Shown here: in pieces, positions 4,907-13,695 of the stretch | How the letters are laid out: each line of letters begins with the position of its first letter | How positions within the stretch are numbered: position 1 is the first letter of the stretch | Source: Nocardia sp. NBC_00565 | GTDB taxonomy: Bacteria > Actinomycetota > Actinomycetes > Mycobacteriales > Mycobacteriaceae | DNA: 64,000 bases | Assembly (NCBI RefSeq): GCF_036345915.1 | Contig: NZ_CP107785.1 | Span: 3,534,001-3,598,000, forward strand | Direction of reading: 5' to 3' | Translations under genes and position numbers: made by a program | Notes under the pieces: model-generated | What the model saw: only the letters and a program-made list of their open reading frames with translations | What the model was told of the DNA's origin: nothing | The model's database searches: none

Positions 4907-4956
4907 CCCGGGTCGATCACACCAAAGGAACCCCCGGCCTAGATCTTGGGTTCACG

Positions 4957-4998
4957 CGATCGTCGCAACACTCTCGATTTGAGAGGTTGCGGCGATCG
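4957..4998. promoter_or_regulatory. inverted repeat overlapping the IS30 transposase start codon
   Basis: CGATCG-T-CGCAAC at 4957-4969 pairs with GTTGCG-G-CGATCG at 4986-4998, with further pairing inside the loop (CTC/GAG). The first base of the GTG start codon is the last base of the right arm. In mRNA the hairpin would lie just 5' of and touching the start site, a common way for insertion sequences to hold down transposase synthesis, especially from transcripts entering from outside. The pairing is visible; the function is inferred. Confidence 0.5.
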
Positions 4999-6104
4999 TG
5001 TCGTTTCAGGAGGATTTGGCCCGGTTCGGTGACCAGTTGGCGCGGCTGGTGGATTCCGGTGTGCCGGTGAAGGATGCGGCGTTGGCGCTGGGGATGACCC
5101 GGCAGCGCTGTTATGCGATTTTGCGGGCGAGGGGCTGCGGTGCGGGCAAGACTCGACGGGCTCGCCGAACTGTGGATTCGCAGGTGATCCGGTCGGTGTT
5201 CGAGTCGAGCGGGTCGGTGAATCAGGCAGCCAAGGCGGCGGGGGTGTCGTATTCGGTCGCCCGCCGGATCTTGGTCGAGGCGGGACTGGTCGGTGCGGGC
5301 AAGAGGGCGCACGGCAAACCGGAGGCTAAAGCGCGGTTCCTCGAACTGGTCGAGGCCGGCTGGTCGACCGTGCGTGCTGCTCGCGAGGTCGGCGTGCATG
5401 AACGCACCGGCCAGGACTGGCGTGGTGGAGTACGCCGGGTCCACCACGGCGGCACCAACGCACGGATTCACCCCGACGGAACGGTCGTGGACTATGCGAC
5501 CGGGACCCGCTACACATCTGCGGTGACCAAGATCAGCAATGGTGCGCCCGCGGCGATCAGCGACCGCTATTTGTCGCTGCGAGATCGGCTGGCGATCGCG
5601 GACGGCCTCGTGGTCGGGCAGTCGTTGACCCAGATCGCCGCCGGGATCGGCAAGCACACCTCAACGGTGTCGCGTGAGGTCCGCGCACACCGGATCGATG
5701 GGCTTTACCTGCCCTATCAGGCTGATCAAGCCGCCGCGAGCGACCGGGCACGACCGAAGCAGTCCAAACTGGTCCTCAACCACGCCTTGCGGGAGGTGGT
5801 GGGTGAGGGTTTGTCGAAGCGGTATTCGCCCGAACAGATCTCCCACCGCCTGCGCAGGGACTTCCCCGACGACGAGAGTATGCGGGTGAGCCACGAAACG
5901 ATCTATCAGGCACTGTATTTTCAGGCCCGCGGCGGGCTGAAACGCGAAGTGGCCCAAGCCCTTCGGACGGGCCGGACCAGACGTATGCCACGCCGTGCAC
6001 CCGATCAGCGCACCCGCCGGTTCGTCGATGAGATGATCATGATCAGCGACCGGCCCGCCCAAGTCGAAGACCGTGCGGTGCCCGGCAACTGGGAAGGTGA
6101 CCTG
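4998..6104 (+). CDS. IS30-family transposase, exon 1 (N-terminal 369 codons)
   Basis: Exon 1 begins at GTG 4998 (MSFQEDLARFGDQLARLV) and runs 369 codons to ...NWEGDL, where the group II intron starts. It carries two N-terminal helix-turn-helix-like segments (near residues 20-45 and 65-90), then the IS30 signature helix-turn-helix LTQIAAGIGKHTSTVSREV, the SPEQISHRLRRDFPDD segment, and the start of the DDE domain, PGNWEGD, whose Asp368 is the first catalytic residue. Unspliced reading continues into the intron and stops at 6176, giving a 392-residue protein lacking the other two catalytic residues. Spliced to 8283-8720, the full product is 514 residues and appears intact. Confidence 0.9.
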
Positions 6105-6416
6105 GTGCGCCACGAGGCGCTGTTGAACCGAGTGGAGGTGAAAGACCTGCACCGTTGTGCTGTCGCAGCAGCATAACGAAGCTGGGGGCAACCCGAACCG
6201 GGAGACGCCGGGGAGGGTGGCAAGCAGCCCCGACAACGACGGGACGGACCAGTACTACCGGATGGTTCGGGTCCGGCAAGCATGAGGAGAAGGTGTACGC
6301 GAGGAACCAGTGTTCTAACGCCTCTCAAGTCTCCCGCCAGCTCCAAACCCGGTGGATTCGGGCTGGTCTGCGATGCGCACCAACACCTTCCGGCGTTGGG
6401 AACTCCGGGGTCGGTT

Positions 6417-6422
6417 TAGGTC
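6417..6422 (+). other. candidate exon-binding site 1 (EBS1) of the group II intron
   Basis: UAGGUC pairs with the last six exon bases GACCUG (6099-6104) with one G-U at the end, and pairing can extend to nine positions (UAGGUCGUC with GGUGACCUG) using further G-U pairs. It lies in the 5' part of the intron where domain I is expected. This was found by eye; the surrounding stem-loop was not folded, so another site is possible. Confidence 0.35.
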
Positions 6423-6655
6423 GTCGGCCCCGGAGGCCACGGTGAAGGCCTGCGGCGTAGCCGTGGCGATATCGCAGGGGCATAGCTGGGCACCTCACTC
6501 CTCGAGCGGTTAGCAGTGAACGTGGGAACCACCGCGAGGCTCCCGAGTATCGGCCTCTTCCCGAGGTCTGTAGTTCGGGTTGACGCGTCGTCTGTCGATG
6601 GCCACGCGGTGGGGCGGAGGGGCCGTAGTAGTCCGAGCGAGGGAAAGCCTCGTGC

Positions 6656-8167
6656 ATGGCGAAGGGCCCCAGCGGAATTGATGCAGTGAGCACGACACGA
6701 ACGGAGGCACTGGTGAATACCGGTGAGCTGTCATGGCCCGATCCCGATCGGGCGGCATGGCGGGTACGACAGATGCAATGCAAGCTGCACCACTGGGCGG
6801 TCGAGGATTCCGGCCGCCTCTTCGATGACGTGTTCAACCTCGTCTATCACCCGGATTTCCTCACCGTCGCGTGGGGCCGGGTGCAGGGGAACAAAGGTGC
6901 CCGCTCGGCCGGTGTCGATGGGCTGGCACCGGCGTCGATCGTCGGGGATGGCGAGATCGTGGCGTTCCTGGGTCAGGTCCGAGAGCAGGTGAAGACTCGG
7001 ACGTTTGCTCCACTTCCGGTGCGGGAGAGACTTATTCCCAAACCGGGTAGTAGCAAGCTCAGGCGACTCGGTATCCCCACCGCGATGGACCGCACGGTGC
7101 AGGCATCGTTGTTGCTGGTGTTGGAGCCGATCTTCGAGGCGGACTTCGAACCGGTCTCCTACGGTTTCCGCCCGAGGCGTCGCGCTCAGGACGCGATCGC
7201 CGAGATTCACGCACTCGGGACCCGAAGCTATCACTGGGTTTTCGAGGCCGACATCGCTGCGTGTTTCGACGAGCTGGCCCATCCGGCAATCATGGATCGG
7301 GTCCGCACTCGGATCGCCGATAAGCGTGTCCTGGCCCTGATCAAGGCGTTTCTGAAGGCGGGCATCATGTCCGGTGACGGGATGGTCAGGAACTCCGATA
7401 CCGGCACACCCCAGGGCGGCATACTCTCACCCTTGCTGGCCAACATCGCTCTGACGGTGTTGGACGCGCATTTCGTCGCGAAATGGGAGGCCCACACGAC
7501 TTCCTATCGGCGGGAGGCGCACCGCAAACGCGGCGGGGCCACCTATCGAATCGTCCGCTACGCGGACGATTTCGTGATCATGGTGGCCGGGGCCAAAGCA
7601 CACGCGGACGCGTTATGGGACGAAGTCGCGCAGGTTATCGCCCCGTTGGGGCTGAACCTGTCTGTCGGGAAGTCCCGGGTATGTCATCTCGACGAGGGGT
7701 TCGATTTCCTCGGGTTCCGCATCCAACGGCGCCGGAGGAAGGGAACCACCAAGATGAGCGTTTACACCTATCCGTCGAAGAAGGCGTTACTTTCAATCAC
7801 GGCAAAGGTGCGGGCACTCACGAAGAAGGCACGTCATCATGGCCTCGCTGACCTGCTCGGACGCCTCAACCCGGTGCTCCGAGGATGGTGTGCGTATTTT
7901 CGCCACGGTGTGTCGAAAGCGACGTTCGGGTATCTCGATTCCTTCGCCTGGCATCGAATCACCCAATGGTTGCTCAAGCGACACAAGCGAATCACGTGGG
8001 CGGAACTCTATCGGCGTTTCCTGACCGGCAGGCCAGGAAACCGTCCGGCAGTGGACGGGATCATCATGTTCGACACCACCACCGTCGCGGTCACCCGCTA
8101 TCGGTGGCGAGCGAACAACATCCCCACACCCTGGTCCAGCACCGCGGGGGCCGCGGTTCCCGCATAG
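6656..8167 (+). CDS. ltrA: group II intron reverse transcriptase/maturase
   Basis: A 503-residue intron-encoded protein that would bind the intron RNA, assist splicing and carry out target-primed reverse transcription. RT blocks are in order: IPKPGSSKLRRLGIPTAMDR (about 127-146), SYGFRPRRRAQDAI, FEADIAACFD (about 197-205, first catalytic Asp), GTPQGGILSPLLANI, and YADD at residues 302-305, then GKSR and FLGF. The maturase X domain contains LRGWCAYFRHG. No HNH endonuclease (no Cys pairs) follows it, so mobility would rely on nascent DNA strands. ATG 6656 follows GAGGGAAAG; GTG 6689 is an alternative start. The reading frame is intact and stops 16 bases before domain V. Confidence 0.93.
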   Translation: MAKGPSGIDAVSTTRTEALVNTGELSWPDPDRAAWRVRQMQCKLHHWAVEDSGRLFDDVFNLVYHPDFLTVAWGRVQGNKGARSAGVDGLAPASIVGDGEIVAFLGQVREQVKTRTFAPLPVRERLIPKPGSSKLRRLGIPTAMDRTVQASLLLVLEPIFEADFEPVSYGFRPRRRAQDAIAEIHALGTRSYHWVFEADIAACFDELAHPAIMDRVRTRIADKRVLALIKAFLKAGIMSGDGMVRNSDTGTPQGGILSPLLANIALTVLDAHFVAKWEAHTTSYRREAHRKRGGATYRIVRYADDFVIMVAGAKAHADALWDEVAQVIAPLGLNLSVGKSRVCHLDEGFDFLGFRIQRRRRKGTTKMSVYTYPSKKALLSITAKVRALTKKARHHGLADLLGRLNPVLRGWCAYFRHGVSKATFGYLDSFAWHRITQWLLKRHKRITWAELYRRFLTGRPGNRPAVDGIIMFDTTTVAVTRYRWRANNIPTPWSSTAGAAVPA

Positions 8168-8182
8168 CAGTGGCAGTCCGTG

Positions 8183-8218
8183 GAGCGCCGGATGCGATGA
8201 GAGTCGCACGTCCGGTGC
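8183..8218 (+). ncRNA. group II intron domain V catalytic hairpin
   Basis: GAGCGCCGGA...TCCGGTGC form the lower stem, a two-base CG bulge sits on the 3' side, and TGCGAT-GAGA-GTCGCA forms the upper stem with a GNRA tetraloop. The AGC triad is present. This is the diagnostic, catalytically essential domain V. A domain VI hairpin follows (about 8223-8275) and the intron ends at 8282. Confidence 0.9.
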
Positions 8219-8282
8219 GGAGGGCGGGCCGGGGAAACGGACCAGGAGCAATCCTGGCACCGCGCCCCGGTCCGACCCCTAC

Positions 8283-8720
8283 ATCACCGGCGAACACAAC
8301 AAGACCGCGATCGCCACCCTGGTCGAACGCAGCACCCGCTACACCATGCTGGTCCACCTGCCCGACAGCCACGATGCCGAATCGGTGCGCGACGGTCTCA
8401 TCAAGACGATCTCGACGCTGCCTGCGCATCTGCGTGGGTCGCTGACCTGGGACCAGGGCAGCGAAATGGCTCGGCACAAACAGTTCTCGATGGCCACCGA
8501 CATGGCTGTCTACTTCTGCGACCCTGCCAGCCCATGGCAGCGCGGCACCAACGAAAACACCAACGGTCTACTACGCCAGTACTTTCCGAAGGGCACCGAC
8601 CTGAGTGTCTACGGACCCGAAGACCTCGAACACGTCGCACAGGAACTCAACGGACGACCACGCAAAACGCTCGGCTGGGATACCCCAGCCGAGCGCTTAC
8701 GTGATCTACTCACCGCCTAA
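8283..8720 (+). CDS. IS30-family transposase, exon 2 (C-terminal 145 codons)
   Basis: Exon 2 opens with ITGEHNKTAIATLVERSTRY in frame with exon 1. It contains the second catalytic Asp in LTWDQGSEMARH (residue 426 of the joined protein) and the catalytic Glu in QRGTNENTNGLLRQYFP (residue 460), giving D-57-D-33-E, the IS30 spacing. The C-terminal YGPEDLEHVAQELNGRPRKT is also typical. It has no start codon of its own near the intron junction and depends on splicing. No frameshift or internal stop is present, so the spliced transposase could be active. Confidence 0.9.
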   Translation: MTGEHNKTAIATLVERSTRYTMLVHLPDSHDAESVRDGLIKTISTLPAHLRGSLTWDQGSEMARHKQFSMATDMAVYFCDPASPWQRGTNENTNGLLRQYFPKGTDLSVYGPEDLEHVAQELNGRPRKTLGWDTPAERLRDLLTA

Positions 8721-8809
8721 CACCAGCAGTGTTGCGACGACCCCTAGAAACCAAGGATCTCTTGGGCCGGGGGTTCCTTTGCAGTCTCGCCATCGAGGTG
8801 GAATCGGGC

Positions 8810-11730: not shown

Positions 11731-12395
11731 GGCACGACCTCGACCTTGGACAACTTGTACCTGCCGTCGATTTCGACGATCTCGACGCGCAGACGCCAGG
11801 TTCGGGGATCATCCTTGGCACCGGCCGCATTGGTCACCTTCGATACCGCCGAGACGAGGACCGTCGTACTGCCGTCGCCGTTGTGCCGTTCGATTCCGGC
11901 ACCGAGGATTTCACCGACGGATTCGGTTTTGGACTCGCTGATCGCACCGACGAAACGATCCTTCGTGCCCTGGAATTCGGTAAGCCATTGTCCAGTAGCG
12001 TCTTTCGCGATGCGGTCGGCGCTGCCGCCCGGGTCCTTGACGCTCGGCGAGATGAGGTTGACCACCTCCTGCCGGACGGCGCCGAGAAGCGCGAGATCTC
12101 GATCGCCCGCCGCGTCGCTGTCGCGGTGGGCCGCGGCCAGCAGAGTGGCGGACACCGCCAGTGTGACCAGTACGAGTACCGACAGCGCCGCGATCAGCAG
12201 CGCCGCACGGGGTCGCTTGCTTGCTCGCGCCCCATCGGAATCCTTTGTGTCGACCGACTTTTCGCCGACATCGTCCTCGGCGGCCAACTCTTGGACGTCC
12301 GGCTCATCGGCGGCCGACTGTTGGACGTCCGGCTCCGCGGAGACCAGGTCGTCGATATCCGGCTCAGCGACTTCGTAGACAGTTCGATGTGTCAT
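11727..12395 (-). CDS. Mce-associated protein (mas) with acidic N-terminal tail
   Basis: A 222-residue protein starting at ATG 12395 (MTHRTVYEVAEPDIDDLVSA). It has an acidic cytoplasmic tail with imperfect repeats (EPDVQQSAAD, EPDVQELAAE), a membrane helix (ALLIAALSVLVLVTLAVSAT), and an extracytoplasmic domain ending GRYKLSKVEVVP. It is the first mas gene after mceF in the original operon but is now separated from mceF by the tnpB element. The TGA of a short minus-strand frame reading ...NEGVSAPNTR overlaps its ATG, which may be the remains of the old mceF end. Confidence 0.75.
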   Translation of the reverse strand: MTHRTVYEVAEPDIDDLVSAEPDVQQSAADEPDVQELAAEDDVGEKSVDTKDSDGARASKRPRAALLIAALSVLVLVTLAVSATLLAAAHRDSDAAGDRDLALLGAVRQEVVNLISPSVKDPGGSADRIAKDATGQWLTEFQGTKDRFVGAISESKTESVGEILGAGIERHNGDGSTTVLVSAVSKVTNAAGAKDDPRTWRLRVEIVEIDGRYKLSKVEVVP

Positions 12396-12427
12396 CGGGT
12401 GTTTGGCGCGGACACTCCTTCGTTCAC

Positions 12428-13695
12428 GGGGGAGAGGAAGCGCCATCCTCCTTCCAGTGGTTGGGTTGCAAGGATGTGTCGGTGGTGTCGGTTAGATTGC
12501 CGGGTATGACCGAGGTGGTGCGTTACAGCTACCGACTGCGCCCCGGCGTGCAGGCGGAGCGGGCGTTGGTCGCTGAGTGGGATCGGTGCCGGTTTCTGTG
12601 GAATGAGGCTGTGCATCAACAGAAGTCGGGTGGGCGTGTCACCTTCTCCAAACTCGGGAAGTTGCTGACCGAAGCGCGTGCCCGGACCGCGTGGTTGCGC
12701 GACGGGTCCCAAGTCGCCCAGCAGCAAACCCTGCGCACCTACGCCCGAGCCCTCGACCAGTCGTTCAAGGTCAACCGGCGCGGCAGACCGAGGTTCAAAG
12801 CACGGAAGAAGGCATTGCCGTCGCTGGAATACACCGTGCGCGGGTTCAGCATCCGTGAAGGCAGGCTGCTCCTCCCGAAAGGGGTGAGTATCCCGGTGGT
12901 GTGGGCGCGAGAATTGCCGTCCGATCCGACGTCTGTGCGGATCACCCGCGACAGTTTGGGGCACTGGTATGCCTCGTTCGTCGTCCGCCGGGAGGTGGAA
13001 ACAGTGCCGGTGGCAGCGGGTGGTGTCGGTATCGATTGGGGTGTGAGTACCACGGCCACGACGACCGACCCCGAGTTCGACTTGCCTTTTTTGGGGCACC
13101 GGAAGCGGTGTGCGGCGGAGCTGGGGAAAGCGCAACGCCGTATGGCGCGGCGGTACAGCGGTAAGCGTGGCCCGCAGTCGCGCGGTTACCAGCGGGCCGC
13201 CCGGCAGGTGGCGAAGCTGCATAAGAAAGCGGTCCGGCAAACCCGGCATGATTCGCGGGTGTGGGCGAAACGTGTTGTGGCCGAGCATGGGTTGATCGCG
13301 GTGGAGGATTTCCGGCCGAGGTTTCTGGCGAGGTCCACGATGGCGCGTAAGGCGGCGGATGCGGCGATCGGCGCGGCGAAGCGGGAGTTGGTCGAGTGTG
13401 GCGTGCGGGCCGGCTGGAGGGTGGTGTTGGTTCAGCCCGCCTTTACGTCGATAACGTGCAGTGAGTGTTTCGCGAGAGCCAAGCGACTCGAGTTGTGCGA
13501 GAGAACTTTCCGATGTACCGAGTGTGGTTACGCTGCGGGTCGGGATCGGAATGCTGCCAGGGTGATTCTGGTTGTGGCAGAACGCGGCCACAGCAGTGTT
13601 GAGGATGTGAGACAAGCGGGTCACCTCCTTCGGGTGGGTGGTTCGGTTGCGGTCTGAGCTGTGAATCTCCTGCCTTCAGGCAGGAGAAGCGTTAA
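12428..13695 (+). mobile_element. stand-alone tnpB element (IS200/IS605 or IS1341 type)
   Basis: A single tnpB with short flanks and no tnpA transposase. The left end has GAGG...CCTC pairing around 12434-12451 after TTCAC (12423-12427), a possible target motif. The right end has a perfect 8-bp hairpin CTCCTGCC-TTCA-GGCAGGAG at 13667-13686 followed by AAGCGTTAA, typical of actinobacterial IS605-like right ends from memory. No terminal inverted repeats or target duplication are expected for this class. The right end abuts the mceF stop codon. Exact borders are estimates. Confidence 0.75.
12506..13657 (+). CDS. tnpB: TnpB RNA-guided nuclease (IS605 OrfB family)
   Basis: A 383-residue TnpB, a compact relative of Cas12 that uses an element-encoded RNA to cut DNA. 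The start ATG 12506 gives MTEVVRYSYRLRPGVQAERA, the usual N-terminus. The RuvC triad appears intact: Asp177 in GIDWG, Glu267 in AVEDF, Asp347 in GRDRNAARV. The zinc finger uses Cys318, Cys321, Cys337 and Cys340. No frameshift or truncation is visible. It is encoded opposite to the mce operon and has no companion tnpA, so it cannot transpose by itself but could act as an active nuclease that maintains the element. Confidence 0.93.
   Translation: MTEVVRYSYRLRPGVQAERALVAEWDRCRFLWNEAVHQQKSGGRVTFSKLGKLLTEARARTAWLRDGSQVAQQQTLRTYARALDQSFKVNRRGRPRFKARKKALPSLEYTVRGFSIREGRLLLPKGVSIPVVWARELPSDPTSVRITRDSLGHWYASFVVRREVETVPVAAGGVGIDWGVSTTATTTDPEFDLPFLGHRKRCAAELGKAQRRMARRYSGKRGPQSRGYQRAARQVAKLHKKAVRQTRHDSRVWAKRVVAEHGLIAVEDFRPRFLARSTMARKAADAAIGAAKRELVECGVRAGWRVVLVQPAFTSITCSECFARAKRLELCERTFRCTECGYAAGRDRNAARVILVVAERGHSSVEDVRQAGHLLRVGGSVAV

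What the first reader, a model, noticed from the sequence alone, without database searches (positions are those of the whole stretch)
6105..8282. Group II intron sits inside the catalytic core of an IS30 transposase, in frame and in sense
Both junctions are clean (GTGCG at the start, AC at the end). Joining 6104 to 8283 restores NWEGDL-ITGEHN and a D-57-D-33-E triad with no frameshift. The intron enters one codon after the first catalytic Asp, so transposition would depend strictly on splicing. Group II introns in mobile elements are known; the combination of intact IS ends, intact transposase exons and an intact maturase suggests a live two-level element in which splicing efficiency could limit transposition.
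Basis: partly seen in the sequence, partly recalled or inferred. Interest (0 to 1): 0.72.

Follow-up and report, generated by a model that had tools for sequence, protein, structure and literature searches.

The report
Intron homing on transposase active-site codons
A piece of DNA built like a self-splicing, self-copying intron sits inside the cutting-site codons of a bacterial jumping gene, and many of its relatives sit at the catalytic codons of other jumping genes.

Summary
Confirmed. Window 6105-8282 is a complete IIB-type group II intron with an intact maturase, in sense and in frame, one codon after the first catalytic Asp of an IS30 transposase (D-57-D-33-E). An uninterrupted relative of the same genus has both exons contiguous at this point. 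A blind covariation scan of 102 introns recovers EBS1, EBS2 and EBS3; the window's still fit its site, with one EBS2 mismatch. Related introns hold the same codon in IS30 genes, some far more diverged than the introns (maturase dS 0.36, exons 1.05-1.61): homing rather than co-inheritance. Site types change on the RT tree as rarely as possible. TGG at -15..-13 is a shared anchor (55 of 122). 'Live two-level element' is unproven: one IS and one intron copy, no RNA data. Splicing as a brake on the host IS is published for RmInt1 (PMC4238363). New variant of a known kind.

The parts
4923..4939 (+). left half of a terminator-like hairpin split by the IS (outside the IS)
   Evidence: 17/17 inverted repeat with 8765-8781; intact hairpin at the same place in L201-L203
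4942..4944 (+). target duplication GAT, left copy
4945..4972 (+). IS30-type left inverted repeat
   Evidence: 23 of 28 matches to the right end
4998..6104 (+). transposase exon 1 (369 codons), ends NWEGDL
   Evidence: NF033563; translation
6090..6092 (+). TGG at -15..-13, the Trp codon of WEGD; shared distal target element
   Evidence: 55 of 122 sites, against 0-7 at the other offsets from -30 to -3
6091..6096 (+). IBS2 (-14..-9)
   Evidence: covariation of -9 and -11..-14 with intron 226-231; the -10 pair was not recovered
6099..6104 (+). IBS1 GACCTG (-6..-1)
   Evidence: covariation with intron 313-318
6105..8282 (+). group II intron, IIB type, 2178 nt
6110..6525 (+). domain I
   Evidence: consensus fold of 19 introns, columns 6-466; domain naming and window coordinates by hand
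6330..6335 (+). EBS2
   Evidence: unpaired; in the window 4 Watson-Crick, 1 G-U, mismatch at -10
6417..6422 (+). EBS1 TAGGTC
   Evidence: hairpin loop; 5 Watson-Crick and 1 G-U with IBS1
6483..6483 (+). EBS3 (T), pairs with +1 A at 8283
   Evidence: 81% Watson-Crick over 90 introns, 27% expected
6526..6615 (+). domain II
   Evidence: columns 467-562; by hand
6619..6670 (+). domain III
   Evidence: columns 566-618; by hand
6713..8167 (+). intron-encoded RT/maturase in domain IV (GTG start, 484 aa; the longest ORF begins at 6656)
   Evidence: several of the closest listed homologues have 484 aa; dN/dS 0.14 against L008
8183..8282 (+). domains V and VI; probable branch-point A at 8275
   Evidence: RF00029; branch point inferred from position
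8283..8720 (+). transposase exon 2 (145 codons and stop), starts ITGEHN, holds D2 and E
   Evidence: NF033563
8728..8755 (-). IS30-type right inverted repeat
8756..8758 (+). target duplication GAT, right copy
8765..8781 (+). right half of the split hairpin

Best explanation
A mobile IIB group II intron that homes by RNA-DNA pairing into the codons around the first catalytic Asp of IS30 transposases (TGG GAR GGN GAY YTN | exon 2). When transcribed with the transposase it is expected to splice and restore the frame, so the IS works only as far as splicing works; its ribonucleoprotein could then reverse-splice into other IS30 copies with the same conserved codons. It belongs to a mainly actinobacterial lineage in which subclades are loyal to one conserved stretch, often a catalytic motif, of one transposase or recombinase family. 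Shown by computation: anatomy, natural empty site, guide/target covariation, host switching, site loyalty. Inferred: splicing, retrohoming, effect on transposition.
For: Natural empty site. Six domains; 100 of 159 consensus pairs with changes on both sides in 19 introns. EBS1/2/3 found blind among 102 introns. The window's guide ranks the WEGDL site first in 20 and second in 2 of 22 IS30 loci, of about 6,000-7,000 positions each; 4 of the 20 firsts are ties. The -15..+4 stretch ranks 31st of 945 offsets for DNA conservation in 27 of 29 IS30 loci; the 12 best offsets shown lie at the two other catalytic motifs. Same codon occupied in L008 (same genus), L116 (Rhodococcus), L040 (Actinomadura) and L179 (same family); discordant divergence for L001-L008 and L116-L179. 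IS30-site clade 5 of 5, support 0.95; 27 site changes for 28 site types, shuffled minimum 49.
Against: No RNA or mobility data. One IS and one full intron copy in the genome. EBS2 mismatch at -10. The guide score alone is not unique: one other position in the 64-kb window reaches the own site's 11.0 and 25 of 125,764 reach 10. L040 and L001-L179 show no strong discordance of intron and exon divergence. 53 of 126 introns unassigned and 23 in mobile genes away from a catalytic residue as I recall it, so the lineage is not a strict active-site specialist.
Confidence: 0.82

Rival explanations
1. Dead relic: the intron inserted once, no longer splices, and has simply inactivated the IS.
For: Single copies of IS and intron; one EBS2 mismatch; no expression evidence.
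Against: Maturase dN/dS 0.14 against L008; exon 2, behind the intron, dN/dS 0.09 and exon 1 0.24 against the uninterrupted L119; domains and guides intact. A recent insertion would also leave exons intact, so not decisive.
Confidence: 0.2
2. IS and intron travel as one composite element, so the shared site reflects common descent rather than repeated homing.
For: L001 and L179 are nearer to concordant (exon dS 0.67-1.11, maturase 0.48); L040 exons and maturase are alike in identity to the others. The IS has a GAT duplication.
Against: L001-L008 maturase dS 0.36 against exon dS 1.05-1.61; L116-L179 0.30 against 1.19-1.72. Natural empty copies exist.
Confidence: 0.12
3. Active-site placement is an effect of recognition: introns insert anywhere in transposases, but host genes are named mainly when a conserved motif is at the junction.
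For: 53 of 126 are unassigned; I read many junctions by eye before testing them with profiles.
Against: Unassigned sites share the TGG anchor (20 of the 55 TGG sites). 14 of 23 mobile-gene site types lie within 6 residues of a recalled catalytic residue; binomial 1e-8 at an assumed chance of 11%, 2e-5 at 20%.
Confidence: 0.25

Closest known systems
RmInt1 (IIB3/class D) in ISRm2011-2 of Sinorhizobium meliloti (PMC4238363, PMC5894124, PMC8914252; passages only)
   Same: Group II intron of IIB-like structure whose protein lacks an endonuclease domain, inside an IS transposase gene; pairing with the target plus T-15 in the distal 5' exon; splicing said to limit the IS
   Different: IS630 host; the class of the window's protein was not tested; placement beside the catalytic codon and retargeting across many IS families are not in the passages I saw
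IStrons (group I intron fused to an IS; PMC4227781, start of abstract in a listing)
   Same: Ribozyme and IS in one locus
   Different: Group I ribozyme joined to the IS; here a group II retroelement inserted within the IS gene
Inteins and group I introns in conserved active-site motifs (recalled)
   Same: Homing site in the most conserved coding DNA
   Different: Targets here are transposases and the agent is a group II intron
Introns placed just after terminators or in integrons (PMC8919778, passages; PMC7923331, start of abstract)
   Same: Lineage-level target preference
   Different: Sites outside genes or at attC; here EBS1, EBS2 and EBS3 pairing inside codons

Membership tests
Group II intron | Domains V and VI | tested here: met
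   RF00029 over gathering score
Group II intron | Domains I-III present | tested here: met
   Consensus fold of 19 introns, 100 of 159 pairs with changes on both sides; domain naming by hand
Group II intron | Splicing | not testable with these tools
   needs RNA
Group IIB | EBS1 and EBS2 in domain I and EBS3-IBS3 pairing | tested here: met
   Covariation scan of 102 introns; that this marks IIB is recalled
RmInt1 / class D | RT phylogenetic class of the protein | not tested
   no reference class alignment used
RmInt1 / class D | No endonuclease domain in the protein | tested here: met
   Only RVT_1 and GIIM in Pfam at E up to 0.001
Mobile retrohoming intron | Related introns at the same site in more diverged host genes | tested here: met
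   L001-L008 and L116-L179
Mobile retrohoming intron | Measured retrohoming | not testable with these tools
   needs a mobility assay
IS30 family | Transposase model match and DDE spacing | tested here: met
   NF033563 on both exons; 57/33 spacing
IS30 family | Terminal inverted repeats and short target duplication | tested here: met
   28-bp ends and GAT; L122 1624 bp with CTC
IStron | Group I intron | tested here: not met
   only group II intron families matched in 6105-8300

The most novel reading that the evidence does not exclude
A lineage of actinobacterial group II introns has become a specialised parasite of transposable elements: it reads the codons of transposase and recombinase catalytic residues, anchored on TGG (the only Trp codon), as its homing address, and changes its guides to move from one IS family to another while staying on active sites. 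Because the target cannot drift without killing the transposase, escape by mutation is blocked, and the intron acts as an RNA-guided brake on IS activity.
Probability: 0.35. Interest if true: 0.72.

Novelty: new variant of a known kind. Interest (0 to 1): 0.55.

Why it matters
It suggests why some bacterial group II introns live in transposons: active-site codons are addresses that cannot drift. Subclades with readable guides and known sites in IS30, IS3, ISL3, IS630 and others form a natural series for testing how introns retarget, and whether they hold transposons in check.

Tried and rejected
Rejected: the perfect 17-bp repeat 4923-4939/8765-8781 as IS ends. Rejected: choosing the host frame by the longest open frame, misleading at this GC content; replaced by profile searches of exon pieces. 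Led nowhere: structure prediction of an uninterrupted IS30 transposase (mean pLDDT 53); its strand 221-227 holds W-E-G-D-L-I, weak support at most, and no fold search was made. PDB sequence search with that transposase: 0 hits.

Results against my labels: no NCBIfam match for the 3' pieces of L009 and L014 and the 5' piece of L039 (L009 was later matched by its 5' piece; L039 only weakly by Pfam rve below its cut-off), none for L167 labelled IstB, none for one L088 intron labelled IS1380, none for L012, L099, L059, none in Pfam for L197, L057 and the downstream piece of L110. L058 is labelled IS21 by motif, but its 3' piece matches IS1182. Many piece matches lie below the curated cut-off for whole proteins. 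RmInt1 was not placed in the tree, and other group II lineages were not surveyed as a control. Paper searches that could have shown an earlier report of active-site targeting listed none that I recognised; most papers were seen only as listings, and subscription papers are not held.

Full report
OBSERVATION. The intron is real and its ends are right. It begins GTGCG at 6105 and ends CCCCTAC at 8282. Rfam's group II family matches 8183-8282 at 53.8 bits and stops at 8282. The maturase matches RVT_1, GIIM and TIGR04416 over their cut-offs, and no endonuclease domain appears in Pfam at E up to 0.001. Both exons match the IS30 transposase model over its cut-off, the junction at profile 140|141. 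Counted exon by exon, the spacing is D-57-D-33-E.

NATURAL EMPTY SITE. In L119, same genus, exon 1 (84%) and exon 2 (89%) abut exactly, and its transposase reads GHWEGDLITGEYNKTAI. L120 is contiguous too. In 34 aligned IS30 transposases, all close to the first, W-E-G-D-L-I are invariant; the intron enters between L and I. I take the genus as Nocardia because a protein filed under Nocardia miyunensis is 100% identical to the L119 protein over 72% of it; this is inference.

RIBOZYME. A consensus fold of 19 introns (5 from IS30 sites, 14 from IS3 sites) shows domains I, II and III with 100 of 159 pairs changed on both sides in at least one sequence; domain naming and window coordinates are mine. 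A scan of exon positions -16..+6 against every sufficiently filled alignment column of the first 620 nt in 102 introns put the expected pattern on top: EBS1 (intron 313-318) with -1..-6, EBS2 (226-231) with -9 and -11..-14, EBS3 (379) with +1. Relatedness inflates such scores, but order, register and antiparallel course fit IIB introns (recalled). In the window EBS1 pairs at six of six positions (one G-U), EBS3 pairs, and EBS2 fails at -10.

MOBILITY. Five introns with complete junctions at the IS30 site (L001 = window, L008, L040, L116, L179) form one RT clade, support 0.95. Two more, L178 and L188, have an IS30 exon 2 behind the intron but no complete 5' junction; two further close relatives, L189 and L193, gave no IS30 match in the DNA held. 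Maturases of L001 and L008 are 91% identical while the transposase exons are 42% and 60%; dS 0.36 against 1.05-1.61. L116 and L179: 93% against 47% and 57%; dS 0.30 against 1.19-1.72. L001-L179 is nearer to concordant, and L040 is about as far from the others in maturase as in exons. So at least some introns moved between distinct IS30 elements and landed on the same codon. The guide picks out this site: in 22 IS30 loci it ranks first in 20 (4 of them tied) and second in 2; but one other position in the 64-kb window reaches the same score as the own site, so pairing is not the whole address. In 27 of 29 IS30 loci the -15..+4 stretch ranks 31st of 945 offsets in DNA conservation, and the 12 best offsets shown lie at the other two catalytic motifs.

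THE LINEAGE. One repeat of the window's intron (L003) and one of two overlapping starts in L037 were dropped; L178, L184 and L190 had no usable 5' end. After removal of duplicates there were 126, the window's own included: 44 beside a catalytic residue of a transposase or tyrosine recombinase, 23 elsewhere in mobile-element genes, 3 in other genes (GH19 chitinase and DUF222 by Pfam; one kinase-like by eye), 3 preceded by the first 18 nt of a sibling intron, 53 unassigned. Of the 44, 39 rest on a profile match or direct similarity (L039 weak) and 5 on motif only (L014, L173, L180, L037, the second L117). Of the 23, 9 rest on a profile match and 14 on motif or clade, with L058 in conflict and L167 and one L088 intron tested without a match. 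The 44 are IS30 5, IS3 18, ISL3 first Asp 4 and second Asp 3, IS110 3, IS630 1 sense and 2 antisense, IS5 2, and one each of IS256, IS66, ISAzo13, IS1634, tyrosine recombinase sense and antisense. Which residues are catalytic is recalled, not tested; for IS30 only the D-D-E spacing was counted. For IS3, 14 pieces matched the model; 9 meet the junction exactly at profile 223|224, the other 5 begin 3 to 11 residues into exon 2.

SITE LOYALTY. On an RT tree of 124 introns the 28 site types of 73 assigned tips need 27 changes, the minimum possible; 500 label shuffles gave a mean of 53 and a minimum of 49. Not every type is a clean clade: IS110 and IS5 tips are separated by others and count as single only if ancestral there, the IS3 clade holds 3 other tips, and the IS3 orfA-end group has support 0.4. 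Of 23 mobile-gene site types (IstB left out; sense and antisense apart) 14 are within 6 residues of a recalled catalytic residue; binomial 1e-8 at an assumed chance of 11%, 2e-5 at 20%.

ANCHOR. TGG at -15..-13 occurs in 55 of 122 sites and in 0-7 at the other offsets from -30 to -3; T-15 in 83 of 122 (4 of 126 lacked 30 nt of 5' exon). For RmInt1 the protein is reported to contact G-16, T-15 and G+4 (PMC8914252, passage). In the in-frame IS30, IS3, IS256, IS110, IS5 and ISAzo13 sites with TGG it is a Trp codon, which has no synonym.

SETTING. The IS (4945-8755, 1633 bp without the intron) has a GAT duplication and lies in the loop of a perfect 17-bp hairpin between two convergent ORFs. At the same place three of seven relatives examined (L201-L203) keep an intact hairpin without the IS; of the other four one has a different hairpin. 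Of nine further IS30 loci scanned both ends were recognised only in L122, which also splits a hairpin (12 bp) with duplication CTC; a stem of 12 arose in 1 of 2000 random pairs. The genome has one full intron copy and one two-exon IS30 plus a fragment, so I found no empty IS30 target left in it.

PUBLISHED BACKGROUND. RmInt1 lies in the transposase of ISRm2011-2, and its poor splicing is proposed to limit the IS (PMC4238363, passages). I found no report of an intron lineage placed on catalytic codons of many IS families (open-licence papers, mostly seen as listings).

VERDICT. The locus is a new member of a known kind; the lineage-wide placement on active-site codons with site loyalty makes it a new variant. 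Splicing, homing and any effect on transposition remain to be shown.

Noticed in passing
window 4923-4944 and 8756-8781: The IS30 copy sits in the loop of a terminator-like hairpin; L122 also splits one, so this IS30 group may target terminators.
   Followed up: partly
L027, L097, L104 (18 nt) and L037 (42 nt): Introns preceded directly by the first 18 (L037: 42) nt of a sibling intron; by eye the sequence after L097 and L104 does not continue as that intron, so nested intron or 5' duplication is open.
   Followed up: partly
L038, L085 against L048: The same IS630 motif is hit in sense (L048) and antisense (L038, L085) at nearly the same profile position.
   Followed up: partly
L068 4390/6557 (Streptomyces noursei): Intron inside a GH19 chitinase gene, a non-mobile gene.
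   Followed up: no
L183 860/3022: Intron in a DUF222 gene at an HNH-like motif (DUF222; motif recalled).
   Followed up: no
L224 (G321 contig 14): Another IS30 copy interrupted near its WE/GDL codons by about 1.4 kb that has neither end of this intron family; nature unknown.
   Followed up: partly
window 12221-13657: ORF resembling an IS605-type OrfB/TnpB protein (by eye).
   Followed up: no
G106 contig 4: Four maturase matches of equal score in one genome; three have differing flanks (L016, L156, L176), a sign of recent spread of a relative.
   Followed up: no
G000:C1 7543301, 8295348, 510864, 512950: Other group II RT genes in the host genome, two over and two under the curated cut-off.
   Followed up: no
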